This document shows, piece after piece, positions 9,001-47,286 of a stretch of DNA of 48,410 nt. The notes beneath the pieces are model-generated. The model did no database searches and was not told the DNA's origin. It saw only the letters and a program-made list of their open reading frames with translations. The number at the start of each line of letters is the position of its first letter. Within the stretch, counting starts at the first letter, position 1. Source of the DNA: Aureococcus anophagefferens (taxonomy: Eukaryota; Sar; Pelagophyceae; Pelagomonadales; Pelagomonadaceae); assembly GCF_000186865.1 (NCBI RefSeq), contig NW_008705593.1:168263-216672 (forward strand), in the 5' to 3' direction. The translations under genes and the position numbers were made by a program.

Positions 9001-10710
9001 CGCGGCCGAGGAGCGCGCGCTCGTCGCCGGCGCGACGAAGGACGAGATCGCCGCGGACGCGGCCATCGTCGAGAACGGGGCAGGAAAAGAGAGCGACATT
9101 CCCAACTTCAAAGGCTCATATCTCGGCCATTTTCCACTCGTTTTGGCTGATTTTTGGACGAGCGATCATCTCTCGGAACGATCTCGAAGCGCATATGCTT
9201 TTTATCGAACGCGCGCGCGCGGAAAACTCACGTTGAAGCGACGTTGAATCGCCCTCGTGCTGCCCAGGTCGAGAAGATCACCGAGGAGATCGAGACGTCC
9301 GCGGCGGAGACGCGGACGCGCATCCTGCGCGTCGAGGCGCACATGGCCGCGTCGCGCCTGAAGAAGCGGTCGCGCTTCGCGGCGGCGGTCGGCCTCGGCG
9401 AGCTGCCGCCGTGGCTCAAGGCGTGGAAGCTCCGCTACAAGATCTGGGCGCACCGCGCGCGGCGCGGGTTCATCAGGCCCTTCCTCCGGCCGGACCCGAC
9501 GCGCGAGCGGCGGAAGCTCGTCGCAAAGGCGCTGGCGCCCCACGTCATGGAGGCCGTGCTCCTGCGCCACGAGGAGCTGGTGGCGAGAGTCAAGGACCTG
9601 CACAAGATCCACGCGCACGACCCCGCGGAGCGGGACCGCGCGGAGGCCATGATCGAGCGCCTCGACGCGTCCATGCTGTCCCAGTGGGGCTTCGAGGCCC
9701 ACGAGGAGCGGTTCCGGCAGAACGTCGAGGCCGCGATCCGCAAGCAGATGCGGCTCGCGCTGCTCTGGAACGAGGAGCTCGAGGACCTCGAGACCGACGA
9801 CGCGGAGGAGACGCTGGCTCTGCGGGCGTCGAAGCTCATCGAGTTCGAGCGGCTGCAGAAGCTGCTCCCGGCGGAGCGCGCCGTCTACGAGAAGTGCATG
9901 GAGCGCGCGCCGACGGACGCGTACGACGCGCCCGACGAGGCGCCGTCGCTCCTCGTCTGGGTCCTGTCGTGGGCGTTCCTCTTGGGCCTCGTCGCCTACG
10001 TGATTATTTATCTCCTGACGGCGGCGACGGAGATGGCGTCGACGAAGAAGACGCTCGCGTGGCTCTCGGATCTGTGCTACGAGACGGCGTTCATCTACGG
10101 CGTCGTGCTCCCGATCCAGATTCTAGTGCTCGACACGATGCTCCCGTCGCTCCTCAACGAGCGCTTCGGCCACCTCGAGGATCCGACGCAGATCAAGGTC
10201 ATCCCCTTCCACACGCGGCTCCCGGCGACGGCGACGCAGTTCCTGCTGGAGAAGCGGCCGGAGCTCCGGAACACGAAGATCGGCAAGCACATCCTCGAGA
10301 AGCACCCGGAGCGCCACGCGCTGCTGACGGTCATCGACCCCGCGGCCATCGAGCACATGTACGCGGAGGCGACGTGGAAGCCCCGGCCGTCGACGCACCT
10401 CTTCCTCTTCTTCTGGGCGTTCCTCTACGGGCCCCTGCCCGGCGACATCCAGGACCTCATCTTCGAGTACCTCTTCACGCTGTCCCAGCCCCTCGCGAAC
10501 ATCTGCGGCGCCGTCTTCGGCAAGCAGATGCACGGCACGCTGACCCTCGTCGGCTCGGCCTTCCTCCTCGCGGTCTTCTTCACCGTCTTCCAGGTCGCGG
10601 CGATCACCTGGGACCGCGCCGCGCGCCGCTTCAAGTACCTCGACGTCAGGAACCTCCTCGACGACTTCATCGGCGACACGTTCACGACGTCGACCGCGGA
10701 CAGCGACTAG
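1..10710 (+). CDS. polycystin-1-like giant membrane protein, 5' partial, two exons split by an introner
   Basis: Coding sequence is already open at base 2, so the start lies outside. Exons are 2-9067 and 9268-10710, joined in phase 0, giving at least 3,502 residues. Domains in order: FG-GAP/VCBS repeats with DxDGDGD loops (bases 2-940), a Cys-rich piece (1069-1264), a Tyr/Ser-rich stretch (1265-1560), two LamG-like jellyroll domains (about 1664-2270 and 2314-2905, each with SFDGVDDYV and a SIDEV end), Pro/Thr linkers, a PKD/REJ-like region (about 3385-5460), a Cys-rich juxtamembrane part, a membrane helix (6735-6810), His-rich cytosolic linkers, two EF hands (7430-7470 and 7585-7650), further helices (8129-8240, 8414-8530), then in exon 2 a charged helical region and about four more helices. 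The order REJ, membrane helix, cytosolic part, helix bundle resembles polycystin-1. EF hands replace the PLAT domain, which I do not see. Likely a surface receptor or channel partner; ligand unknown. Confidence 0.8.
1322..1435 (+). repeat. 57-bp tandem repeat, two copies, in the Tyr-rich linker
   Basis: Two nearly identical 57-bp units start at 1322 and 1379 and encode a unit containing SNRQDDG, then YGYDTPYIY. They lie inside a Tyr/Gly/Ser-rich linker of the polycystin-like protein. High identity at the DNA level suggests recent duplication. Confidence 0.85.
1564..1605 (+). repeat. 12-bp tandem repeat encoding SPSL
   Basis: About three exact copies of a 12-bp unit (ccttctttgtcg) encode SPSLSPSL just before the first LamG-like domain. 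It is a short, probably unstable, coding minisatellite. Confidence 0.8.
9068..9267 (+). other. intron of 200 bp created by introner copy 1
   Basis: GT at 9068-9069 lies in the upstream copy of the duplication GTCGAGAA (9068-9075). AG at 9266-9267 is the last two bases of the element. The second copy of the duplication is 9268-9275. Removing 9068-9267 joins GCC ATC to GTC GAG AAG and keeps the frame (phase 0). Without splicing the frame stops at 9247. Confidence 0.9.
9076..9267 (+). mobile_element. introner element copy 1 (192 bp, non-autonomous)
   Basis: 192 bp with short imperfect terminal inverted repeats: it begins CGGGGCAG and ends CTGCCCAG, 7 of 8 matching as inverted repeats. It is flanked by the 8-bp duplication GTCGAGAA. 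It is AT-richer than the surrounding exons and holds no ORF of its own. It is close to the copies at 30927 and 37378, roughly nine in ten bases identical by eye to the second. This matches the published class of introner elements in Aureococcus and Micromonas, thought to be moved by a DNA transposase acting in trans. No transposase gene is visible here. Confidence 0.9.
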
Positions 10711-30468: not shown

Positions 30469-33425
30469 ATGGTCGACTACAGTAAATTCAACAACATCGA
30501 CGACAGCGACGAGTCGGAGCCTGAGTGCGACCCGCGCGCCAACGACGCGCAGCGGTGGATGCACAAGCACTTGCCGAACGACGAGGACGCGGCGGGCGGC
30601 GACGGCGAGGACTGGGCCGACGAGGTCGGCGACGACGGCGACGTCGTCCAGGACGTCGCGGGCAAATTCACGGCGGACATGGCCGCGGCCGACGCGGCCC
30701 TCGGCGAGATCGCCGCCGACGCGTCCGTCCTCGCGGCCGAGGAGCGGAGCCGCTACCTCCTCGCGCACTACGGCGGCGGCCCGAACGGCTTCATCCTGAG
30801 CATGGCCCGCGTGCGCCGCGAGCTGCCGCACCTCGGGCGCGACGCCGACGCCATCGTCGCCGCGCTGCGCGGCGGGCCCGAGAGCCCCTGGCCGTCCGTG
30901 CCCGCGGTGTGCACGTACGTCTACGCCGGGGCAGCAAAAGAGAGCGAAATTCCAAACTTCAAAGGCTCATATCTCGGCCGTTTTCCACTCGTTTCGGCTG
31001 ATTTTTGGACGAGCGATCATCTCTCGCAACGGTCTCGAAGCGTGGATGCTTTTTCCGGAACGCGCGCGCGCGGAACACTCATGTTGAAGCGATGCTGAAT
31101 CACTCTTTTGCTGCCCAGGTCTACGCGGAGATCGCGCGGCGGACGACGGAGGCCGAGGCCGCGCGGCTTCGCGAGTCGTCGGAAGCCGGCGCGGCCCTGG
31201 GCTGGATGGCGTCCCAGTACCTCGTCGACCACGTCGACCCGGCGGTGTGGCCGCCGCCGCCGGACGGGCCGCGCGGGACGTGCGACCGCAAGGAGGCGCG
31301 GCGCCGCTGCGAGGCCATCGTCGCCGGGCTCTACCCCTCCCTGGACCGCAAGGTCTTCCAGCGCGTCCTCGCCGGGCGGCCCGTGGACCCGAGCGCCCAC
31401 TGCCCGCTCCGCGACGACCGCGACCTTTTTGGACAACCGGTTTTGTCCGCGTCGCTTTTAGTGGCGGCGCCGGCGCTCGCGCCCTTCGTCGCCGTCGACG
31501 CCGTCGTCGACGTGGGCCGGCGGACCATCGTCGAGCTCTACGCCTGCGACGCGCTCGACGCGGCGGCGCTGCGGACCGCGGCCTGGCGCGCCAAATTGCT
31601 CGCGCGCTGCGGCGACGACGCGCCCGTGCCCCGGGGCAACATCCTCGCGGCCTTCCGCCTGCCCGGCGCGGCCCCGGCGGCGCTCCGGGAGGTTTACGCG
31701 CCGCTCTTCGACGCCGCGGTCGACGTCGCGGCCTACGACCGCACGATCTGCCGCGGGAAACGCGACGGCTGGGCCGCGGTGTCGCGCGCGGGCCACGCGG
31801 CGCACTGCGGCCTCGCCTCGAACCCGGCGCCGGCCCGGGCGGCGGCCCAGATCCTGCGCGACGCGCTCCGGGCGGGCGGCGAGGCGCGGCGGCTGAGCTT
31901 CTTCATGGCCACGGTGCAGTACTGCAACCACAACCTCGAGAAGCTCGAGTCGGAGAGCGGCATCCCGGAGGGCGCGACGGGCGAGTTCGGCGGCTGGGCC
32001 TACAACCTGGACCGGGTCCTCGGCGGCTTCAAGCTCGGCCTCGAGCAGGTCGGCGTCGCGGCCGCGCTCCTCCGGACCGGCGCGTTGCGCCACGACACGC
32101 ACGACTTCTCGGTATCCGAGCTGGCGAAGCTCCTGACGGACGGCGAGCGCAAAGCCTGCGGCCTGGAGCAGCTCGTCGACCCGATCTTCGGCCACGGCGT
32201 CGACGCCTGGCTCGGCGCCGCGGACGCGCCGCGCGTGCCCGAGCGCGACTCGATCCTGGCGGCGCGCGGCGCGAACCACGGCAAGGCGCTCATGAACTGG
32301 GCCTGCGGCCTGCGGGGCCTCGTGTCCGCCGCCGTCGGCGTCGTCGCCGCCGAGGAGATGCACCGCGTCGAGTCGACCTACGCCTTTGTACAGAGCGGCG
32401 GCGCGGTCGCGGACGACGCGACGGTCGCGGCGCTGGGCTGGGCGGAGGCCGAGGTCTTCCTCGCCTTCAACGTCGTCGGCAAGGGCTGGACCTACGCCGG
32501 GAGCGCCATGGACGTCGACGAGCGGTCGGGCCTGCCGCGCTTCGTCTGCGACTTCGAGGCGCACGCGGCGCCGTACGCCAAATATCGCGGCGAGCAGACG
32601 GAGACGCGGGTCTCGCGCGAGGGCGGCCGCTGCGCCATCTGCCTCCAGGACGACCTGGACCGGGGCGACGACGCGACGCCCTTCAAGGAGCTGCGGCCCT
32701 GCCTCCACGCCTTCTGCGCGGGCTGCGTGAAAAAAATCGGCCCGTCGTGCCCGCTCTGCCGCCGCGCGGTGGAATCCGTCGGCGACCGCTGGGGCCGCCT
32801 CGCGACCTTCGAGCGCGCCTGCCGGCTCGCGGGCGCGGACCCGAAGTTGCTATTATGCGCCGGCGAGGGCCAGATCCAGGCCATGAAGCTCCTGAAATGC
32901 GCGCGCGGCGGCGCGCCGCCGCCGGACTGGCCCCCGGGCCTCGCGGGCGCGAAGCTCGTCGCCATGCGCTTCCGCCGGTCGGCGAGCCGCGTCGTCACCG
33001 TCGCCACGGACGTGGACCACCGCCTCGCCGGCGCGCGCGCGCCGGGCCTCGAGGCGACGTACGTCGTCGACGACGTCGTCGACGACGGCAAGGTCGCGCG
33101 CCGCAAGTGCAGCAACGGCGCCTGCGCGGCCAAGCACGAGGCCCAGCCCGGCGCCTTCCGGAACTGCGCGCGCTGCCGCCGCGTCCAGTACTGCTCCCGC
33201 GCCTGCCAGGCCGCCGCGTGGAAGGCCGGCCACCGGCTCCTCTGCCCGCGCGTCGCCGCGCTCGCGCCGCCGCCGCCCAAGCCGGCGCCGCCGCCCAAGC
33301 CGCCGGCGCCGCCGGGCAGCTTCGAGCTCGCGGCGCAGCGCGGCTACGTCGAGCCGCCCAAGGAGACGGACGCGAACTGCGTCTTCCACGCGGACCGCGC
33401 GCCGCCGCCCCCGGCGGCGCCGTAA
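30469..33425 (+). CDS. RING-MYND zinc-finger protein with an introner
   Basis: Exons 30469-30918 and 31119-33425 give 918 residues. The acidic N-terminus is followed by a long region of unknown fold. The RING finger lies at about 655-700 (CAICLQ ... CLHAFCAGC ... CPLCRR, C3HC4 type). The MYND finger lies at about 814-860 (CSNGAC ... CARCRRVQYCSRACQ ... HRLLC). The tail is Pro-rich. RING suggests E3 ubiquitin ligase activity; MYND suggests binding of Pro-rich partners. No SET domain is seen. The intron is exactly the 200 bp made by introner copy 2; splicing joins CTY to VYAEIARR. Confidence 0.8.
30919..31118 (+). other. intron of 200 bp created by introner copy 2
   Basis: The donor GT is the first two bases of the upstream duplication GTCTACGC (30919-30926). 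The acceptor AG is the last two bases of the element, and the second duplication is 31119-31126. Phase 0. Confidence 0.92.
30927..31118 (+). mobile_element. introner element copy 2 (192 bp)
   Basis: Same length, orientation and ends (CGGGGCAG ... CTGCCCAG) as copy 1, with roughly twenty substitutions spread along it and no indels. Flanked by an exact 8-bp duplication. Confidence 0.92.
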
Positions 33426-33533: not shown

Positions 33534-36500
33534 ATGGGTCGCCGGGCCGCGGCCCTGGCGCTCCTGGTCCCGGGCGCGGTCGCCGCGGGCAACTCCTACC
33601 GGGAGTACGAGGAGCGGCTGCGCTGGACCGTGAACACGCTCCTGGCCGTGACGCAGCAGCCCTGGACCATGGTCAAGAACATGGCCGGCTGGTACGACAG
33701 CGGCGTGCTGAGGGACATCTACGACGAGCGCAATTGGAGCACGGCGCGGACGAACACCTTCGTCAACGTGCGCATACTCCAGCCCGGGTCCACGACGGCG
33801 ATGCTCTACGCGGGCTTCGAGGACGGCTCGTTCCAGGGCTACTACACCTGGGGCGCGAGCCCGCTGAGCGTCAACGACAGCGCCGTCTACACGGAGACGC
33901 GGGGCTGCGCGTGGAACTACACGGCGGCCTGCGGCGGCGACGGCTACTGCGCCGCGGGCTACCCGCGGTACCAGCCGGCGTGCCGCGGCTACCACGACTG
34001 CGACGACCAGACGGGCGTGCCGACCCTCGCCGTGGACCTCGCGGACGACGCCGTCTACGACCCGCGGGCGCGGCCCTGGTACCAGGGCGCCGTCGCGGCC
34101 TACGCGGACCGCGGGCCGGAGACGTGGAGCGACCTCTACTACTTCTTCACGGACCGCGTGCCGGGCCTCACGGCGATGCGGGTCTTCACGCACGGGCCCG
34201 GCGGCGCCGTCTACGGCGTCGCGGCGCTCGACCTCAAGCTGTCGTCCTTCATCGAGCTCGTCCAGAACTACTACCCCGCGGACGGCTCCGACGGCGTCGC
34301 CTACCTGACGGAGCGGGGGAGCGGCGAGCTCGTCTTCTCGAGCCTGGGCGACGTCGGCTTCGAGCTCGACGCCGCGGGCGAGGTCCTGGGGCGCTCCTTC
34401 CCGACGACGACCAACTCGAGCCTCGCGGCGATCGCGGCGGTCGCCGCGACGCTCGGCGGCGAGGACGGCGTCGTCGTCGTCGACGGCCTCGAGCACTGGG
34501 TGCTCCACGACGACGTCGTGGACGCGTACGGCATCGCGTGGAACATCACGGTCGTCCACGCCTGCGCCTGCGCGGAGGGCTACGGCCTCTACGACGGCCA
34601 GATCGACTGCGAGCTCTGCCCGGCCGAGTTCGGGCTCACGAGCGCGGAGGGCTCGAACCGCTGCGACAGCTGCGCCGAGGGGTCCTACGTGAACGGCCTG
34701 GGCCGCTGCAGCGCCTGCCCGGAGGGCGCGTCCTGCGACGACCTCGGGCTCGACGACGAGTTCGGCGACGGCGACGCGGTATTGCGCGTCGGCGTCTTCG
34801 CGCCCCTGGCGGTCCGGGGCGCCAACGGGTCCGAGCCCTTCCTCGACGGCGACGTCGCGCGGACCCTGAGCGCCGCGGGCGCCCTGGCCGCGGCGCTCTT
34901 CAACGGCCGCGACGCGTCCGTGCTCGACGCCTTCTCCGCCGACGCGCTCGACGGCTGCGACGTCCGGGTGCAGGTCACGCACCACAACACCTACGACGAG
35001 GTCATGGACGCGATCGGCCGCTACCGCGAGGCCTACGACTACCTCCACGCCATCGTCGGGCCGGCGGCGTCCGCGCGCGCGGAGCCCATCTCCGCGAACG
35101 CGGCCGTCGACGAGATCCCCGTCGTGTCCTACCTGGCGACGTCGACGGACCTCGACGACCGCGCGACGCACCCCTACTTCTTCCGCGTCATCGCGTCGGA
35201 CCGCGTCCTCGCGGAGCACATGTGCGACATCGTCGCCCACTACGGCTGGAGCTACGTCGGCCTGCTCTACGTCGACGACGCCTACGGGAGCTCCTTCGTC
35301 GAGGTGCTCGGCGAGAAGCTCACGGGCGGCGGCGTCTCCATGCGGGCCTCGTCCTTCGCGTCGGGCGACGCGGCGTCGGCCCTCGCCGGCGTCGCGCGCC
35401 TCCGGGACGCGGACGCGCGCGTCGTCGTCGTCGTCGCCGTCGACGACGACCTCGCCAACATCCTCGACGCGGCGCTGGCCTGCAACATGACGGGCGACGA
35501 CCACGCCTGGATCTACGCCGACGGCATCGCCCTCGCGACCATGGCGGCCGCGCGCGGGGAGCGGTACGCGGACGCGCTCGCCGGCGCGGCGCACGTCGGC
35601 ATGGTCGTGCCGGCGACGGACGAGGCGGCCGGCTTCGCCCGGACCTACGCCGCGCAGAACGAGAGCGACTACAGCCCGCGCCTGGCCATGGCGGACCCCT
35701 ACGCGCGGCTCGAGGCCGGCTTCTTCGCCAAAGGCGTCGCCACGGACTACCCGCTCCTCGTCTTCGACGCGATGGCCGCCGTCGCGCTGGCCGCGTGCGC
35801 GGTGCGCGCGGGCGGCGGCGACCCCGCGGACGGGTCGGCGCTCGCCGCCGCGCTCTACGCCGTCGACTTCAACGGCACGCAGGGGCGCGTGGCCCTCGAC
35901 GGCTACGGCAGCCGCCTCGGGTCCACGGTGGCCTACGACCTCTACAACGTCCGCCGCGATCCGGCGGACGCGGCCGCGGTGCTGCCCGTGCGGCTCGGCA
36001 CCTACGCCGACGGCGCCTGGCCCTTGGAGCACTTCCGCTTCCACGACAACACGACGACGCCCCCGAGCGCGACGGACGTCGTCTCGTGCGGCCCCGGGAC
36101 GATCCAGAGCGCCGACGGCGCGCGGTGCGAGGCCTGCGCGGCGGGCACGTTCTCCGAAAGCTGGAACGCGGCCTACTGCGAGCCCTGCTCCGTCGGCACG
36201 ATCTCGGGCGCCGGCGCGACGGCCTGCGCCACCTGCGCGGCCGGCAAATTCGCGTCCGCGACCGCGCGCAACGCGAACAACTCGGGCGTCGTCTCCGAGG
36301 CGCGGTACTGCGCGTCCTGCGGCGCCAATTATTATAGTGACGCCAACGGGTCCGTGCCAGCGTCCTGCATCCGTGACGATTGTGACCGGGAAAACGATGA
36401 AACATCGTTACCGACGCATGTGGTAGGTCCGTGCTCTGCAAGCCCTGCCCCGAGGGCGTCACGTCCCTGGCCGGGTCGTCGGCCTGCGACCTCTGCGTCG

Positions 36501-38674
36501 CCGGGGCCTTCGACGACCGACCGCTCGCGGACGTCGCCGGCGGCGGCGAGGCCGCGTGCCGGTCCTGCCCGAAGCACTTCGACTGCGGGAAAGACGGCTA
36601 CACGCTGGAGACGCTGCGCATCGACGGGGGCTACATGCGCACGACGACGCTCAGCGACGCGGCCATCCCGTGCGTCGGCGGCGACGGCGGCGCGAACTGC
36701 CCCGACGACGACGAAGCGCGCGTGGGCTGCGCGGCGGACTCGAGGACGGCGGGCCCGAGCTGCCGCACCTGCGACGACGGCTACTACCTCTCGGAGGCCG
36801 CGGGCCGCTGCCACCCCTGCGGCGACATGGGCGACGGCGACGACCCCGTCATGCTCCTCAGAATAGGGCTCGTCGTTTTGCAGTGCGGCGTCGTCGGCGT
36901 CATCATCTACCGGACCATCGGCGGCGCCGCCGACGAGCGCCACGCCAAGACGTCGAACAAGGCGACGCGGCTCCAGCAGAAGCTCCGGTCCAAGTGGAAG
37001 ATCTGCTACGTCGCGTTTTCCATCATCTACTCCATGCCCGCGCTCCTGCCGTCGATCAGGTACCCCACGGCCGTCGCGAACCTCATGTCCCTCTTCGCCA
37101 TGATCAACTTCGATCTCGTCACGCCGCTGCCCGCGTCCTGCTTCCTGCGGACGTCGCACCACGGCTTCTACCGGACGCTCGTCTTCTCGACGGTCGGCCC
37201 GCTCGCGGTCGTCGCGGCCTGCGTGGTCGGGTCCGAGGCCCGGCGCCGCGCGGGTGAGCTCTGGTCCTCGGCGCGCCAGACGCGCGAGGCCGTCGAGGTC
37301 GAGGACGACACGGTGGAGGTGCCGCGGGAGCCGCGCGCGCCGCGCGCGTGGCGCACGTTCGTGTCCGTCGCGCTGCTCAGGGCAGGACAAGGGTGATTCA
37401 ACGTCGCTTCAACGTGAGTGTTCCGCGCGCGCGCGTTTCAAAAACAGCACCCACGCTTCGAGAGCGCTCCGAGAGATGATCGCTCGTCCAAAAATCAGCC
37501 GAAACGAGCGGAAAACGACCGAGATAGGAGCCTTTGAAGTTGGGAATTTCGCTCTCTTGTCCTGCCCAGGCGCTGCTCGTGACCTACCTCGTCGTGCCCA
37601 CGGTGACGACGGTCGTCTTCCGCACCTTCGTCTGCGCGCCCTTCGACGCCGAGGTCGGCGGCGAGCTGCGGACGGACCGGTTGCTCGTCGCGGACGTGAC
37701 GGTCGACTGCGGGTCCGCGTCGTACGCGGCCCATCGCATCTTCGCGCTGCTCATGGTCGCGGTCTGGCCCGTGGGCGTGCCCCTCTGGTACTTCGTGCTC
37801 CTGCGGGACGCGCGGGCCCGCATCGACCCGGAGGTCGACGGCGAAAAGGCGCGGATGAAGGCCGACGGCGGCGAGGCGCGCGTCGGGCTCGCGCTCGAGA
37901 TCCGCGACGGCGACGCGTCGATCCAGCACCTGAGCCTGCTCTACGGCCCCTACGAGGGCGAGTTCTGGTACTGGGAGATCGTGGAGCTCCTGCGGCGCGT
38001 CGCGGCGACGTCCGTCGTCATGGTCGTGTCCGACGGCGACGTGAGCCGCCTATTCTACTGCATCATCCTGTCGATCCTGAGCCTGAACCTCTACGACCTC
38101 TTCGAGCCCTTTATTTCCGCGTCGGACGATTTGCTGGCGGAGGCGCTCCAGCTCATCACGCTGCTCAACTTCATCGCGACGCTCGGCTTCGCCGTCGGCG
38201 CGGGCAGCTTCCTCGGCGCGCTCATGCTCGCGCTCCAGCTCGTGGCCGTCGTCGCCTCCGCGGCGCTCATCTGGACGGACGTCCGCGCCCGGCGCCCCCG
38301 CCCGCCGCGACCCGACCCGCCCCGTCTCATAGGTGCACCGCGAGCGCGCGGCGCTCGAGTTCCTCGCGGAGGAGGCGAAGCAGCAGATGAAGGAGTACGG
38401 CGTCGACCTCACGGGCCGCGCGGACGCGCCCCGGAAAAAACAGGCGACGAAGCGCGAGTCCGTGAGCGAGGTCGCCGAGGCCGTCGGCGCGGCCTTCGCC
38501 GCGCTCTTCGGCGACGCGCCCGACGAGCACTCGGCGGCCGACGACGACGACAACCGGAGCTGGGACTCCGCGGAGGACCGCGACGACTTCAGCGAGGGCT
38601 CCGCGGGCGACATCGACGCGCTCTGCACGCCCATGCCCCTCTCCGTGCGCATCTCCGATAACGAAGAGCTGTAG
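33534..38674 (+). CDS. Cache and ANF-receptor-domain multipass surface protein, four exons
   Basis: Exons 33534-36349, 36427-37369, 37570-38280 and 38333-38674 give 1,603 residues. A signal peptide (1-19) precedes a double-Cache sensor (about 30-250) with the signature YDPRARPWYQGA. A Cys-rich linker follows, then a periplasmic-binding/ANF-receptor ligand domain (about 416-836: VLRVGVFAPLAV, HAIVGPAASARAEPISAN, YGWSYVGLLYVDDAYGSSF), as in class C GPCRs and bacterial amino-acid-binding proteins. A second Cys-rich region of the GCC2/GCC3 type spans about 845-1070. From about 1078 come nine or ten helices with FWYWEIVELLRR between two of them, then a charged cytosolic tail. The helix count and motif do not fit a seven-helix GPCR; it is probably a ligand-gated receptor or channel of protist type. 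Introner copy 3 interrupts a membrane helix. Confidence 0.75.
36350..36426 (+). other. 77-bp intron created by short introner-like copy B
   Basis: The donor GT opens the upstream duplication GTCCGTGC (36350-36357). The acceptor is TGGTAG (AG at 36425-36426) and the second duplication is 36427-36434. Splicing gives NGSVLCKPCPEG in the Cys-rich region, phase 2. Confidence 0.85.
36358..36426 (+). mobile_element. short introner-like element, copy B (69 bp)
   Basis: 69 bp between perfect 8-bp duplications. It shares CGTGACGA, GACCGGGAAA, ATGAAA-ATCGT and a TGGTAG end with copy A near 24875-24948, and has a near-inverted repeat GTGACGAT/ATCGTTAC. It is unrelated in sequence to the 192-bp family. 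Confidence 0.75.
37370..37569 (+). other. 200-bp GC-AG intron created by introner copy 3
   Basis: The donor is GC, the first two bases of the duplication GCGCTGCT (37370-37377). The acceptor AG is 37568-37569 and the second duplication is 37570-37577. Splicing gives FVSVALLVTYLVV, phase 0. Confidence 0.88.
37378..37569 (-). mobile_element. introner element copy 3, reversed (192 bp)
   Basis: Reverse complement of the family seen at 9076 and 30927, again 192 bp. In this orientation the gene-sense ends read CAGGGCAG at the left and CTGCCCAG at the right, so the acceptor AG comes from the opposite terminus of the element. Confidence 0.9.
38281..38332 (+). other. 52-bp GT-AG intron
   Basis: Starts GTCCGCGCC after ATCTGGACGGAC and ends CTCATAG. 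It joins the last membrane helix (ALIWTD) to the tail VHRERAALEFLAEEAK in phase 0. C-rich throughout, no sign of a duplication. Confidence 0.75.
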
Positions 38675-38682
38675 GTTTTAGT

Positions 38683-39903
38683 TCACTTCGCCGGCGGCGG
38701 GCTGCTCGACGACGAGCCGAAGAGGCCCGTCCGCGCCGCGGGCGCGGGCGCCGCGGGCGGCGGGCTGCTGCTCGACGACGAGCCGAAGAGGCCCGTTCGC
38801 GCCGCGGGCGCGGGCGCCGCGGGCGGCGGGCTGCTCGAAGACGACGAGCCGAAGAGGCCCGTCCGCGCCGGCGCGGGCGCCGCGGGCGGCGGGCTGCTCG
38901 ACGACGACCCGAAGAGGCCCGTCCGCGCCGCGGGCGCGGGCGCGGCCGCGGGCGGCGGCGCGCCCTCGAAGAGCGCCTGGATCTGGCGGACCGCGTGGTC
39001 GTGGAGCTCCTGGGACATGCGCTGCGCGTCCCAGCGCGGCGAGTACTTGTAGGCCTCCCGCGGCAGCTGGCGGGGCCCCTTGCCGTCGTCGAGGAACTCG
39101 CGGAGCGACAGCTGCGGCGGCTTCGAGGGAAACGACGCGTCGAAGTGGACGCTCAGCACGCAGAGGAAGAGGCGCTTGTCGACCTTGAGGTTGAGCAGGA
39201 GATGGCAGCTCCCGTAGTCGAGGCAGTCCACGTCGACGACGACGTAGCGCTTGAGGAAGGACCGGCACAAATTCCGCCGCCGCCGCCACGAGCCGACGAG
39301 CGCGTCGCGCGCGGCGTCGGCCGGCGCGTCCCCGAGGTCCGCGGGCAGCGGCGCGAGGGCCTCGCAGGTGAGGGGCATGGCCGCGCGCGGCAGCGCGAGG
39401 AAGCGGCCCTCGCGGCCGTCCGCGGCGAGGTCGTAGGTCAGCGCGAGCGTCGGCGCGTCCGCCAAGGCGCGCGCGGCGTCCGAGAACGCGTCGCCGGCGT
39501 CCGCCGGCCGGCAGAGGCTCGCGACGAGCTCGGCGCGCCGCCGGCCGACGTCGACGACGACGCCGAGGAGCGCGCCGGCGGACCAGAGCGCCGCGACGTC
39601 CGCGGCGAGCCGGCCGCCGGCCTCCGCCGCCTTCGCGGTCTGCCGGCCGTGGAACGCCTCGGACGCCTCGCCGGCGACGGTGGCCGCCGTCGCGCCGCCG
39701 CCGCCGCAGAGGCTCGGGAAGCAGGCCGCGAGCTCGTAGCTCGCGTAGGGCGACTCGTCGCCGTCCGGCAGGCCGCCGGGCCGCGGGATGAGGTCGACGA
39801 TGCGGTCGTCCTCCAGCACGACGCTCCACTCGATGGACCACTTGGCGTAGGGAACTTTCAAGGTGGTCTGGCCGTTGGCGTGGACGAGCTCGGCAGCGGC
39901 CAT
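38683..39903 (-). CDS. BABAM2: BRISC/BRCA1-A complex subunit BRE with GLFG-rich tail
   Basis: 406 residues from MAAAELVHANGQ; an ATG at 40017 would add 38. The C-terminal core has the family's UEV-like signature: SVHFDASFPSKPPQLSLREF followed by YKYSPRWDAQRMSQELHDHA, close to the YPYSPRWD block of animal BRE. The N-terminal half fits the first UEV-like domain (KWSIEWSVVLEDDRIVDLIPRP). BRE is a scaffold of K63-specific deubiquitinase complexes containing BRCC36. The last 90 residues are an unusual addition: four repeats of PAPAARTGLFGSSSSSPPP. The stop is 8 bp from that of the convergent receptor gene. Confidence 0.85.
   Translation of the reverse strand: MAAAELVHANGQTTLKVPYAKWSIEWSVVLEDDRIVDLIPRPGGLPDGDESPYASYELAACFPSLCGGGGATAATVAGEASEAFHGRQTAKAAEAGGRLAADVAALWSAGALLGVVVDVGRRRAELVASLCRPADAGDAFSDAARALADAPTLALTYDLAADGREGRFLALPRAAMPLTCEALAPLPADLGDAPADAARDALVGSWRRRRNLCRSFLKRYVVVDVDCLDYGSCHLLLNLKVDKRLFLCVLSVHFDASFPSKPPQLSLREFLDDGKGPRQLPREAYKYSPRWDAQRMSQELHDHAVRQIQALFEGAPPPAAAPAPAARTGLFGSSSSSPPPAAPAPARTGLFGSSSSSSPPPAAPAPAARTGLFGSSSSSSPPPAAPAPAARTGLFGSSSSSPPPAK
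38698..38952 (-). repeat. 63-66 bp tandem repeat, four copies, encoding GLFG units
   Basis: Units begin at 38698, 38761, 38827 and 38890 (63, 66 and 63 bp apart) and are nearly identical, varying by one Ser codon and a few bases. They encode RTGLFGSSSSSPPPAAPAP-type repeats at the BRE C-terminus. Confidence 0.9.
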
Positions 39904-44362: not shown

Positions 44363-45553
44363 TCATGGGCCGTCGTCGTCGCGCGCGCGCTTGGCGCCGA
44401 CGGCCGCGTCGGCGCCCTTGGCGGCGCCGTCGGCCGGGGCCGCGGCGGGCGCGGCCTTGCCGTCCGCGGCCTTGCCGTCCATGTTCTGGAGGATGCCCAT
44501 GGCGACGCGCTCGCTGACCTCGATCTGGACGCCGAGGAAGTTGACGACGTCGCCCGCGTCGTCGCGGAGCGCGGCGATGAAGAAGTGGTTCCAGAACGTC
44601 GTCGAGTCGATCTTGTAGTTGAGGAGGCAGATCTGGACGTCCGTGCCGTGTTTGATGGCCTCGCGGATCTTGCCCACGGCGCGCGCGTCGGTCCGCGGGC
44701 CCTGGAGGAAGCGGCAGTTGCGGCCGAGGACCTGCTCGAGCTTGTAGCCCGTGAGCGAGAGGAAGCCGCCGCTCGCGAAGACGATGGGGTTGTCGGGCAG
44801 CGTCGGGTCCGTGATGACGAAGGACCGCCGCGCGTGCTTGAGGGCCTCGAGGAGGCCGTAGTCGTACTTGTTGATCGCGCGCGTCCGCTCGCCGCCCTCG
44901 CTCAGCGACGCCTCGCCCTCGGCGTCGCCGTCGCCCTTGGACTGCGCCGCGCAGTACTCGAGGCTCGGCGCCGCCGCCTCGGCGCCGAGCTTCTCGCGCA
45001 CGAACTCGCGGAGCCGCTCGTTCTCGCCCTGGTACGCGACGAGCGACTGCTGCAGCGATTCGATGATGAGCTTCTTCCGACACCTCGACCGCCGCGCGTG
45101 CTCCCGGTTCCGCGCGCGCCGCGTCTCCGACAGGTCCGCCGCGTCCTTCGGCTTCGAGCCCGCGGCCGCCTTGGCCTTGGGCTTCGACTCCTTCTCGCTG
45201 GGCAGCGGCAGCGACGCTGCGGGGCGCGCAAGCTCGGTCGGAATCGCGGCGGGGGACATCGCGCGCGCGCGGCCCGAGTTTCGTGCGCGCGCGCGCTCGT
45301 GCGACGCGCGGCGCGCGGATGCGCCCCGGGGGCGCGGCAGGAAACCCCCCGTTCCGGACGCCGCGCGCGCGCCGATGAGCTCCTCGTCGGTGATCGGCGT
45401 GTCGACGACCGGCTGGGGCCCGGACGAGCCGTACATCTTCGCCGAGCCCGGCTCGACCGGCAGGTCCGAGAGCTCGTTGAAAAATAGGCCGTCCATGACG
45501 TCGAGCTCCTCGCTCGCGTCCAACCCGAACGTCGGACCGGAGAGGGCGGTCAT
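44363..45553 (-). CDS. aureochrome-type bZIP-LOV blue-light transcription factor, divergent LOV
   Basis: 396 residues. bZIP at about 140-185: the basic region has RRARNREHARRSRCRKK, followed by a leucine/hydrophobic heptad zipper (LIIESLQQSLVAYQGENERLREF). The LOV domain spans about 240-345: FVITDPTLPDNPIVFAS, GRNCRFLQG with photoactive Cys280, FWNHFFIAALRD, and FLGVQ with the flavin-contact Gln. The order bZIP then LOV is diagnostic of aureochromes. The segment normally NYRKDGTPFWNQ is NYKIDSTTFWNH here, so flavin binding or signal output may differ. A GC-repeat stretch at 45262-45310 lies within the N-terminal part and could hide a small intron. Acts in the nucleus as a light-controlled DNA-binding dimer. 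Confidence 0.9.
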   Translation of the reverse strand: MTALSGPTFGLDASEELDVMDGLFFNELSDLPVEPGSAKMYGSSGPQPVVDTPITDEELIGARAASGTGGFLPRPRGASARRASHERARARNSGRARAMSPAAIPTELARPAASLPLPSEKESKPKAKAAAGSKPKDAADLSETRRARNREHARRSRCRKKLIIESLQQSLVAYQGENERLREFVREKLGAEAAAPSLEYCAAQSKGDGDAEGEASLSEGGERTRAINKYDYGLLEALKHARRSFVITDPTLPDNPIVFASGGFLSLTGYKLEQVLGRNCRFLQGPRTDARAVGKIREAIKHGTDVQICLLNYKIDSTTFWNHFFIAALRDDAGDVVNFLGVQIEVSERVAMGILQNMDGKAADGKAAPAAAPADGAAKGADAAVGAKRARDDDGP

Positions 45554-46275: not shown

Positions 46276-47286
46276 ATGGCGCTCGCGGATCAGATGTCGT
46301 TCTCGGCGAACGGCGACTTCGGCATCTCCGACGCGGGGCTCTGCGACTATCTCTTGAACGACCTCGACGACGACCCCGCGTCGACGGACGCGATCTACGC
46401 GGCCGTGTCGGCGACGACGAGCGAGCACAGCGGCGAGGGCGGCTCGAGCGGCGGCGGCGGCCTGGGCCTCGGCGGCGGCCTGGGCCTGGGCCTCGGCGGC
46501 GCCAAGCCCGACAAGGAGGACTCCGAGGACGGGTCGTCGACGGAGCCCGCGGGCAAGCGGCGCAAGGGCGAGGGCGGCGCGCGCGCGAAGACGCAGGCGC
46601 AGATCGACCGGCGGCGCGACCGGAACCGGATCCTCGCGCGGCGCACGCGGCTCCGCAAGAAGTTCTTCTTCGAGAGCCTGCAGCAGCAGGTCAACGAGGT
46701 CGAGCGCGAGAACGCGCTGCTCAAGGAGCTCGTCCGCACGAACCCGCTCCTCGCCGGCGACAGCGCGTCGGTGCTGTCGACGTGCACGACGGCGCTGCCC
46801 GCGGTCGTCACGGAAAACCGGAGCCGCGCCACGGACCTGCTCAACGCGTCGGACTTCACGCTCATGCAGACGCTCCAGAGCGCGCAGCGGTCCTTCTGCA
46901 TCACGGACCCGAGCCTCAAGGACAACCCCATCGTCTACGCGTCCGCGTCGTTCCTCTCCACGACGGGCTACCCCCTCGACGAGGTCATCGGCAAGAACTG
47001 CCGCTTCCTCCAGGGCCCGGGCACCTTCCCGGGCACCGTCGCGGAGCTCGCCAAGGGCATCGCCGAGGGCACGGACACGACGGTGACGATCCTCAACTAC
47101 AAGAAGGACGGCACGCCCTTCTGGAACCAGCTCTTCGTCGCGTCGCTCCGCGACATCAACAAGCGCGTCGTCAACTACGTCGGGGTCCAGATCCCCGTCG
47201 CCGGGCCCCTGCCCAAGCCCGGCGACGAGCCGGTGCCCTTCCCGGCCAAGGAGGCCAAGGACGCGCCCAAGGCCGACGGCTCGTGA
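46276..47286 (+). CDS. aureochrome (bZIP-LOV blue-light transcription factor)
   Basis: 336 residues. Acidic N-terminus, Gly/Leu-rich spacer (about 56-76), nuclear-type basic stretch (AGKRRKGE), bZIP at about 110-160 (RRRDRNRILARRTRLRKKFFFESLQQQ), LOV at about 205-305 with FCITDPSLKDNPIVYAS, GKNCRFLQGP (Cys242), NYKKDGTPFWNQLF and YVGVQ. All key flavin-binding residues are present, so it should form the blue-light cysteinyl adduct. Known aureochromes bind TGACG-type sites and control light-dependent growth or development in stramenopiles. Single exon. Confidence 0.95.
   Translation: MALADQMSFSANGDFGISDAGLCDYLLNDLDDDPASTDAIYAAVSATTSEHSGEGGSSGGGGLGLGGGLGLGLGGAKPDKEDSEDGSSTEPAGKRRKGEGGARAKTQAQIDRRRDRNRILARRTRLRKKFFFESLQQQVNEVERENALLKELVRTNPLLAGDSASVLSTCTTALPAVVTENRSRATDLLNASDFTLMQTLQSAQRSFCITDPSLKDNPIVYASASFLSTTGYPLDEVIGKNCRFLQGPGTFPGTVAELAKGIAEGTDTTVTILNYKKDGTPFWNQLFVASLRDINKRVVNYVGVQIPVAGPLPKPGDEPVPFPAKEAKDAPKADGS

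What the first reader, a model, noticed from the sequence alone, without database searches (positions are those of the whole stretch)
37370..37577. Introner copy 3 is inverted and uses a GC donor
The element lies in the opposite orientation yet still makes a precise 200-bp intron, starting GC (duplication GCGCTGCT) and ending AG. So the family can form introns in both directions, and the only donor need is a target beginning GT or GC.
Basis: seen in the sequence. Interest (0 to 1): 0.88.

Follow-up and report, generated by a model that had tools for sequence, protein, structure and literature searches.

The report
Introners with one swappable splice acceptor
A short, likely jumping, piece of DNA sits in an algal gene with its middle reversed and is predicted to be cut out of the RNA as an exact intron starting with the rarer letters GC; reversed middles and GC starts are both common in this genome, and in this family nearly every copy counted carries the splice-acceptor letters on only one of its two ends.

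Summary
Copy 3 is a 192-bp element (37378-37569) between two GCGCTGCT duplications; removing the first duplication plus the element (200 nt, GC...AG) restores the frame exactly. An environmental protein (P0001) matches the spliced gene at 361 of 369 residues without gaps, across this intron and a second, ordinary one; no RNA was seen as such.

Neither half of the headline is rare or new. In the window's own 49-Mb genome (probably Aureococcus anophagefferens), exact patterns find 720 forward and 270 reverse copies. Target duplications start GC in 400 and GT in 318 forward copies, GC in 136 and GT in 133 reverse copies. Abundant GC-AG introns in this alga and introners in both orientations are in print.

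It has two mirror-image end types: forward copies carry the acceptor AG on one end, reverse copies on the other. Only 5 of 996 counted copies carry it on both (about 200 expected if independent). Polarity appears to have switched more than once, perhaps by inversion between the end repeats (untested). A second, related family does carry AG at both ends, which weakens my RNA-accessibility idea for why family 1 avoids it.

The parts
37370..37377 (+). first copy of the 8-bp target duplication GCGCTGCT; predicted to supply the donor GC
   Evidence: GC or GT at this position in 100 of 100 fetched copies with a readable duplication
37378..37569 (-). introner family 1, copy 3 (192 bp), interior reversed relative to copies 1 and 2; reverse (R) end type
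37378..37391 (+). terminal repeat without acceptor, CAGGGCAGGACAAG (base 2 is A, not T)
37556..37569 (+). terminal repeat with the acceptor, CTTGTCCTGCCCAG; AG at 37568-37569
37570..37577 (+). second copy of the duplication, first bases of the next exon
36401..37369 (+). open reading frame upstream, in frame with the exon after copy 3 (host gene of unknown function; no Pfam match at E 0.001)
37570..38280 (+). exon downstream of copy 3
   Evidence: ungapped match to P0001
38281..38332 (+). second predicted intron of the same gene, 52 nt, GT-AG, not an introner; also absent from P0001
9076..9267 (+). introner copy 1 (forward type CGGGG...CCCAG), duplication GTCGAGAA at 9068-9075 and 9268-9275
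30927..31118 (+). introner copy 2 (forward type CGGGG...CCCAG), duplication GTCTACGC at 30919-30926 and 31119-31126

Best explanation
Copy 3 is a 192-bp element with inverted end repeats between two copies of an 8-bp sequence inside a coding frame, and it is predicted to be removed as an exact 200-nt GC-AG intron, because one of its ends carries the acceptor AG and the likely target duplication would supply the donor GC. It is one of a large family of what are probably non-autonomous DNA transposons (introners) in the genome of a pelagophyte alga, probably Aureococcus anophagefferens. SHOWN by sequence: the element, the duplication, the restored frame, the two mirror-image end types (acceptor on one end or on the other), and GC or GT at the start of the duplication on the side that faces the acceptor. 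INFERRED: that the spliceosome uses this junction; that insertions without G[C/T], or facing the wrong way, are lost by selection; that the two end types are interconverted lineages, most simply by inversion of the interior between the inverted end repeats; that a transposase acting in trans moves them.
For: Anatomy. Family size: 1642 core matches. End types by exact genome-wide patterns: forward 720, reverse 270, acceptor on both ends 8 hits of which 5 at 192 bp, on neither 16 hits of which 1 at 192 bp; about 200 double-acceptor copies expected if the ends were independent. In 104 of 106 core hits in fetched loci with readable ends: 58 forward, 46 reverse, 0 with both. G[C/T] at the donor in 100 of 100 with a duplication matching at 6 or more of 8 (62 GC, 38 GT), against 20% of dinucleotides in flanking exons; the other side of the duplication is not constrained like this. 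After removal the best coding frame is sense in 93 of 100 and the same sense frame on both sides in 83 of 100. P0001 equals the gene with both introns removed at 361 of 369 residues, no gaps; a GT donor at 37367 would drop the V that P0001 has. A reverse-type, GC-donor copy in an IFT121/WDR35-like gene (L083) aligns without a gap across the junction, as does a forward, GC-donor copy in a DDX46-like helicase (L060). At L028 (reverse, GC) three environmental proteins and proteins of two other pelagophytes keep the residues before the junction. Polarity switching: interior tree needs 10 changes, shuffles 32; pairs with identical printed letters 3-80 but opposite base 2 (C2:123319 against C2:1961303; C2:2364078 against C4:2673051, compared).
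Against: No RNA read was seen; P0001 could in principle come from an allele without both introns, and P0006 seems to retain another, upstream intron, so some 'joined' proteins may be empty-site alleles. No transposase was found (hAT dimerisation domain PF05699: 0 matches, but no control rang). The interior tree has no starred branch, and its own test says that one origin of each end type is not ruled out. 7 of 100 copies do not fit a sense frame best, and 2 of the first 100 listed copies in each class lack G[C/T]. That so few copies seem to lie outside genes is not explained.
Confidence: 0.85

Rival explanations
1. Copy 3 is spliced from an ordinary GT donor 3 or 9 nt upstream (37367 or 37361), not from GC.
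For: In-frame GTs lie at -3 and -9. Annotation pipelines seem to choose upstream GTs: P0007 (A. anophagefferens JL721_6866) lacks 12 residues before the introner site of L028, as expected from a GT-AG junction forced there.
Against: P0001 keeps the residues that these donors would delete. 50 of 62 GC-donor copies have no GT at -3, -6 or -9. In 100 copies the first base of the duplication is G in all and the second is C or T in all.
Confidence: 0.07
2. The element is simply bidirectional: identical ends, each with an acceptor, so orientation at insertion does not matter.
For: It fits the related family 2: 6 of 11 copies examined have CT...AG ends, two with perfect 14-bp repeats (L032, L081), and their G[C/T] targets imply use in both directions.
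Against: In family 1 only 5 of 996 counted copies carry both acceptors and 0 of 104 in fetched loci.
Confidence: 0.04
3. One acceptor per copy is kept because a perfect repeat would pair with the acceptor AG in the pre-mRNA; the mismatched base (A, G or C, never T) leaves it free.
For: Base 2 of the acceptor-less end is A in 87, G in 12, C in 1 and T in 0 of 100. Folding predicts the acceptor A unpaired with mean probability 0.87 natively and 0.045 if that base were T.
Against: Family 2 copies with perfect repeats seem to sit in coding sequence as introns although the acceptor is predicted paired (0.001 unpaired in L032). Whole-intron folding is not stronger than shuffles (z about -0.6 for copies 3 and 2).
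Confidence: 0.3
4. One acceptor per copy reflects the transposase: one end must keep a canonical CAGGG terminus, so only one end could mutate to the acceptor, and this happened at either end.
For: A perfect CAGGG...CCCTG repeat with an 8-bp duplication resembles hAT elements (recalled); the common form of each class differs from it by one base at one end (sequence).
Against: Base 2 of that end also reads G in 12 of 100 and C in 1 of 100 copies, which a strict terminus would not allow; no hAT domain found (uncontrolled); at 192 bp a neither-acceptor form is represented by 1 match.
Confidence: 0.35
5. The G[C/T] start is a target preference of the transposase, not a filter by splicing.
For: Exceptions are very few, also among the 7 of 100 copies that do not fit a sense frame best.
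Against: The constraint is one-sided and follows the acceptor in both mirror classes; a target preference alone would not put 93 of 100 copies in the sense direction of a coding frame.
Confidence: 0.15

Closest known systems
Introner elements of Aureococcus anophagefferens (Huff, Zilberman and Roy 2016, Nature; not held here, known through citing papers and recall)
   Same: short non-autonomous elements that make introns on a genomic scale; characteristic length about 210 bp (PMC9481584, passages); direct repeats and terminal inverted repeats (PMC7789003, passages); insertion in both orientations (PMC10228655, passages)
   Different: the mirror-image end types and the near-absence of double-acceptor copies are in none of the passages that I saw; the primary paper may contain them
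Abundant GC-AG introns of A. anophagefferens (PMC3033335, passages)
   Same: 39.6% of introns GC-AG in that alga, called an enigma, with a consensus U1 5' end
   Different: here the GC donors of one family trace to the duplicated target: GC is 77% of G[C/T] in flanking exons and 54% of target starts (536 of 987), so GT is favoured about 2.8-fold per available site
Aureococcus sp. introner family 4 of PMC9860276 (passages; section 7)
   Same: 8-bp duplication, same genus
   Different: that family carries both splice sites and adds four codons; this one is predicted to remove itself exactly

Membership tests
Introner (intron-generating transposable element) | many near-identical copies as introns at unrelated coding sites | tested here: met
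   1642 core matches; after removal, sense frame in 93 of 100 fetched copies
Introner (intron-generating transposable element) | transposon hallmarks: inverted ends and target duplication | tested here: met
   8-bp duplication matching at 6 or more of 8 in 100 of 104; bases 3-14 of the two end repeats match at 9 to 12 of 12 in the 100 of 105 copies of 191-193 bp
Introner (intron-generating transposable element) | exact removal in RNA | tested here: inconclusive
   P0001 contiguous over two introns, but its source molecule is not known to be RNA
A. anophagefferens introner elements | found in that species | tested here: inconclusive
   genome unnamed; the best hit with a named organism for L028 is A. 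anophagefferens JL721_6866 (92% in the search listing; 96% in the alignment, with 12 residues missing)
A. anophagefferens introner elements | sequence identity to the published element | not testable with these tools
   Huff et al. not held
hAT superfamily | mobilised by a hAT transposase | tested here: inconclusive
   PF05699 0 matches, no control rang
hAT superfamily | 8-bp duplication | tested here: met
   shared by other superfamilies too (recalled)

The most novel reading that the evidence does not exclude
Family 1 introners are polar splicing cassettes: each keeps exactly one acceptor end and reverses its direction of use by flipping its interior between its own inverted ends, while the acceptor-less end is held at any base but T so that the repeat cannot bury the acceptor; a transposon has thus tuned its own spliceability, displacing an older symmetric design (family 2).
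Probability: 0.2. Interest if true: 0.75.

Novelty: new variant of a known kind. Interest (0 to 1): 0.5.

Why it matters
Introners are a leading explanation of mass intron gain. The orientation and GC-donor claims confirm what is in print. The new part, if it stands, is a concrete rule: one acceptor per copy in one family and often two in its relative, in the same genome. That makes it possible to test what a transposon must do to become an intron. The donor table also offers a simple origin for the noted GC-AG excess in Aureococcus: donors are taken from GC-rich exons. There is a practical cost as well: one public gene model lacks 12 conserved residues, as if GT had been forced at one such intron.

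Tried and rejected
Rejected: copy 3 as a rare failed inversion (270 reverse copies). Rejected: a GT donor nearby. Weakened by my own later result: the acceptor-accessibility idea, which looked strong on family 1 and then met perfect-repeat copies of family 2.

Led nowhere: hAT domain search; PDB match for the CLC-like stretch of L061 (0 hits); L028 against the PDB gave only one weak match, QmcA; the copy 3 host protein has no Pfam family at E 0.001. The search with the L083 protein found 8 relatives at 47-60% identity, none near-identical, so no cDNA-like check there. Huff et al. is not held. The seven paper searches that ran asked for introners with Aureococcus, pelagophytes, transposase, GC-AG, both orientations and splice sites; none asked for end polarity as such, I saw passages or a section of five papers, and most subscription papers are not held, so absence from print is not shown.

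Rows dropped or unresolved: of 106 core hits in fetched loci, 2 had no readable ends and 4 (L008, L038, L064, L066) had duplications matching at fewer than 6 of 8; L038 may be a shifted reading. L001-L030 were picked for likeness to copy 3 and L031-L060 for likeness to copy 1, so only L061-L090 is unselected for class (20 forward, 10 reverse; donors in 28 of 30: forward 14 GC and 4 GT, reverse 5 GC and 5 GT). Of the 3 double-acceptor hits of other length, 1 is a reverse copy and 2 are unresolved; of the 15 no-acceptor hits of other length (one copy is hit twice), 2 are forward copies and the rest were not checked. The forward pattern admits A or G at base 2 and the reverse pattern only CCCTG, so copies with other bases there are not counted. 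The donor patterns use an 18-letter core and the totals a 21-letter core, so the sums (718, 269) and totals (720, 270) are not strictly the same set; they read the exon-side copy of the duplication. In family 2 one of 12 hits, a 72-base piece in L068, was left out.

Full report
WHAT IS THERE. The finding's coordinates are exact. A 192-bp element (37378-37569) lies between two copies of GCGCTGCT (37370-37377 and 37570-37577), and the 200 nt from 37370 to 37569 begin GC and end AG. Its interior matches copies 1 and 2 as the reverse complement. The gene reads on the + strand; without removal the frame meets stops within a few codons, and with removal it continues.

SIZE OF THE FAMILY. The window lies in a 49,050,692-base assembly of 86 contigs. 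A 29-letter core is found 817 + 825 times at up to one mismatch; the reversed control pattern is found 0 + 0 times. With 63-76% GC per 2 kb and, for one fetched gene, a best hit with a named organism in Aureococcus anophagefferens, I take the organism to be that alga or a close relative; this is an inference.

TWO MIRROR END TYPES. I aligned ends in 90 fetched loci holding 106 core hits; 104 had readable ends. Read in the element's own direction, 58 end C[A/G/C]GGG...CCCAG (forward) and 46 end CTGGG...CCC[T/G]G (reverse); 0 have the acceptor at both ends. Exact genome-wide patterns agree: forward 720, reverse 270, both ends 8 hits with 5 at 192 bp, neither end 16 hits with 1 at 192 bp. I counted only the 192-bp hits of the last two, judging the others to be end motifs met by chance in the flank: one of the three double-acceptor hits of other length is a reverse copy, and two of the no-acceptor hits are forward copies; the others were not resolved. 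Even with all of them the classes stay far from the roughly 200 double-acceptor copies that independence would give. Read in the direction of the gene, both types look alike at the ends (5' CRGGG, 3' CCCAG), and only the interior is reversed. So 'inverted' describes the interior of copy 3, not its splicing ends.

DONORS. In 100 copies whose duplication matches at 6 or more of 8, the first base is G in 100 and the second is C in 62 and T in 38; no other position, including the mirrored last two, is constrained like this. Flanking exons have 20% G[C/T] dinucleotides (GC 15.4%, GT 4.6%). Genome-wide on the exon-side copy: forward GC 400 and GT 318, reverse GC 136 and GT 133; forward and reverse do not differ (P = 0.15). 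GC makes up 536 of 987 (54%) against 77% among G[C/T] in exons, so GT is preferred about 2.8-fold per available site. Of the first 100 listed forward places 63 are GC, 35 GT and 2 neither; of the first 100 listed reverse places 46 are GC, 52 GT and 2 neither.

IS IT SPLICED THERE? Removal along the acceptor gives a best sense frame in 93 of 100 (50 of 55 forward, 43 of 45 reverse) and the same sense frame on both sides in 83 of 100. For copy 3, P0001 (environmental, source listed as jgi, 1921-base contig) reads FVSV-ALLV straight across and also lacks the predicted 52-nt GT-AG intron at 38281-38332; it matches the doubly spliced gene at 361 of 369 residues without gaps. GT donors at 37367 or 37361 would delete residues that P0001 has. 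P0002 begins with what reads as the 3' end of an introner joined to ALLV and reads through the second intron, so it looks like an unspliced relative with an introner at the same site, but with a different arm (HPFP where the window would read LSCP). Conserved proteins give independent checks at GC-donor copies: L060 (forward, DDX46-like) and L083 (reverse, IFT121/WDR35-like) align across the junction without a gap; they show what exact removal restores, not that it happens. At L028 (reverse, GC), P0005, P0006, P0095 and proteins of two other pelagophytes (P0013, P0069) keep VTDMTPDARVRN or its equivalent before the junction, while the A. anophagefferens gene model P0007 lacks exactly those 12 residues, as expected if the annotation forced an upstream GT. 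Caution: P0005 differs from the L028 gene in its first part, and P0006 carries residues that look like a retained upstream intron, so it may be an empty-site allele rather than cDNA.

POLARITY SWITCHING. On a tree of the interiors of 105 copies (20 bases trimmed at each end) the end type needs 10 changes against 32 in shuffles; no branch is starred, and the built-in check does not exclude one origin. Directly visible: forward C2:123319 and reverse C2:1961303 print the same letters 3-80, as do forward C2:2364078 and reverse C4:2673051. The arms are mosaic: bases 15-18 of the left arm are AGAG in 49 of 55 forward and GGTG in 35 of 45 reverse copies of 191-193 bp. Since both ends change together and intermediates are rare, inversion of the interior between the inverted ends is the simplest single event; it is inferred, not shown.

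WHY ONLY ONE ACCEPTOR? In 100 copies the acceptor-less end has A 87, G 12, C 1, T 0 at base 2. T is the base that would complete the repeat and pair with the acceptor A. Mean predicted probability that the acceptor A is unpaired: 0.87 natively, 0.045 with T. Against this stands family 2: 11 of 12 hits examined in the fetched loci, most about 203 bp, 8-bp duplication, ends CTGTG...CACAG or decayed forms of it. Six have acceptors on both ends and five at one end only; G[C/T] lies opposite an acceptor in 11 of 11, which implies six forward and five reverse (L032 has it on both sides and was assigned by coding frame; copies with two acceptors have two chances). L032, with a perfect 14-bp repeat, has a predicted unpaired probability of 0.001 and still sits in coding sequence. 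So a paired acceptor is probably not fatal everywhere, and a transposase requirement or plain lineage history is as likely for family 1.

KNOWN BEFORE. Passages seen: 39.6% of introns GC-AG in A. anophagefferens, called an enigma (PMC3033335); introners inserting in both orientations, attributed to Huff et al. 2016 (PMC10228655); characteristic length about 210 bp (PMC9481584); direct repeats and terminal inverted repeats of constant length in that alga's introners (PMC7789003); variety of splice-site recruitment and 0 to 50% GC donors across introner families (PMC9860276, passages, section 7). Huff et al. itself was not held. The finding's two headline points are therefore known; the mirror end types and the contrast with family 2 I found in none of these passages.

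Noticed in passing
L022, L032, L039, L043, L050, L053, L065, L071, L081: A second, related introner family (about 203 bp, CTGTG...CACAG ends, 8-bp duplication): 11 copies examined in the fetched loci, apparently used in both directions; no hit in the window at E 1e-6 with one query.
   Followed up: partly
L028:1493-1692; protein P0007: Public A. anophagefferens gene model JL721_6866 lacks 12 conserved residues just before a GC-donor introner site, as if an upstream GT had been forced; other models may share the fault.
   Followed up: partly
window 37570-37577; protein P0002: An unnamed relative seems to have an introner at the same site as copy 3 but with a different acceptor arm, a cluster of changes while the exons are nearly identical; may reflect arm conversion after insertion.
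   Followed up: partly
G000 C8:1609598, C13:238338, C13:1294372, C17:421276, C19:572253; C32:684: Five double-acceptor and one no-acceptor family 1 copies at 192 bp, the rare intermediates; flanks could not be read.
   Followed up: no
L005, L020, L032, L069: The two copies of the duplication differ at base 2: donor GC with exon GT in three, donor GT with exon GC in one.
   Followed up: no
window 44561-44874 and 46841-47154: Inverted pairs of similar stretches (72% and 82% complementary) about 2 kb apart, perhaps paralogous genes facing each other.
   Followed up: no
window 38689-38955: Four copies of a repeat spaced 63-66 bases apart, the other three 76-92% alike to the reference copy.
   Followed up: no
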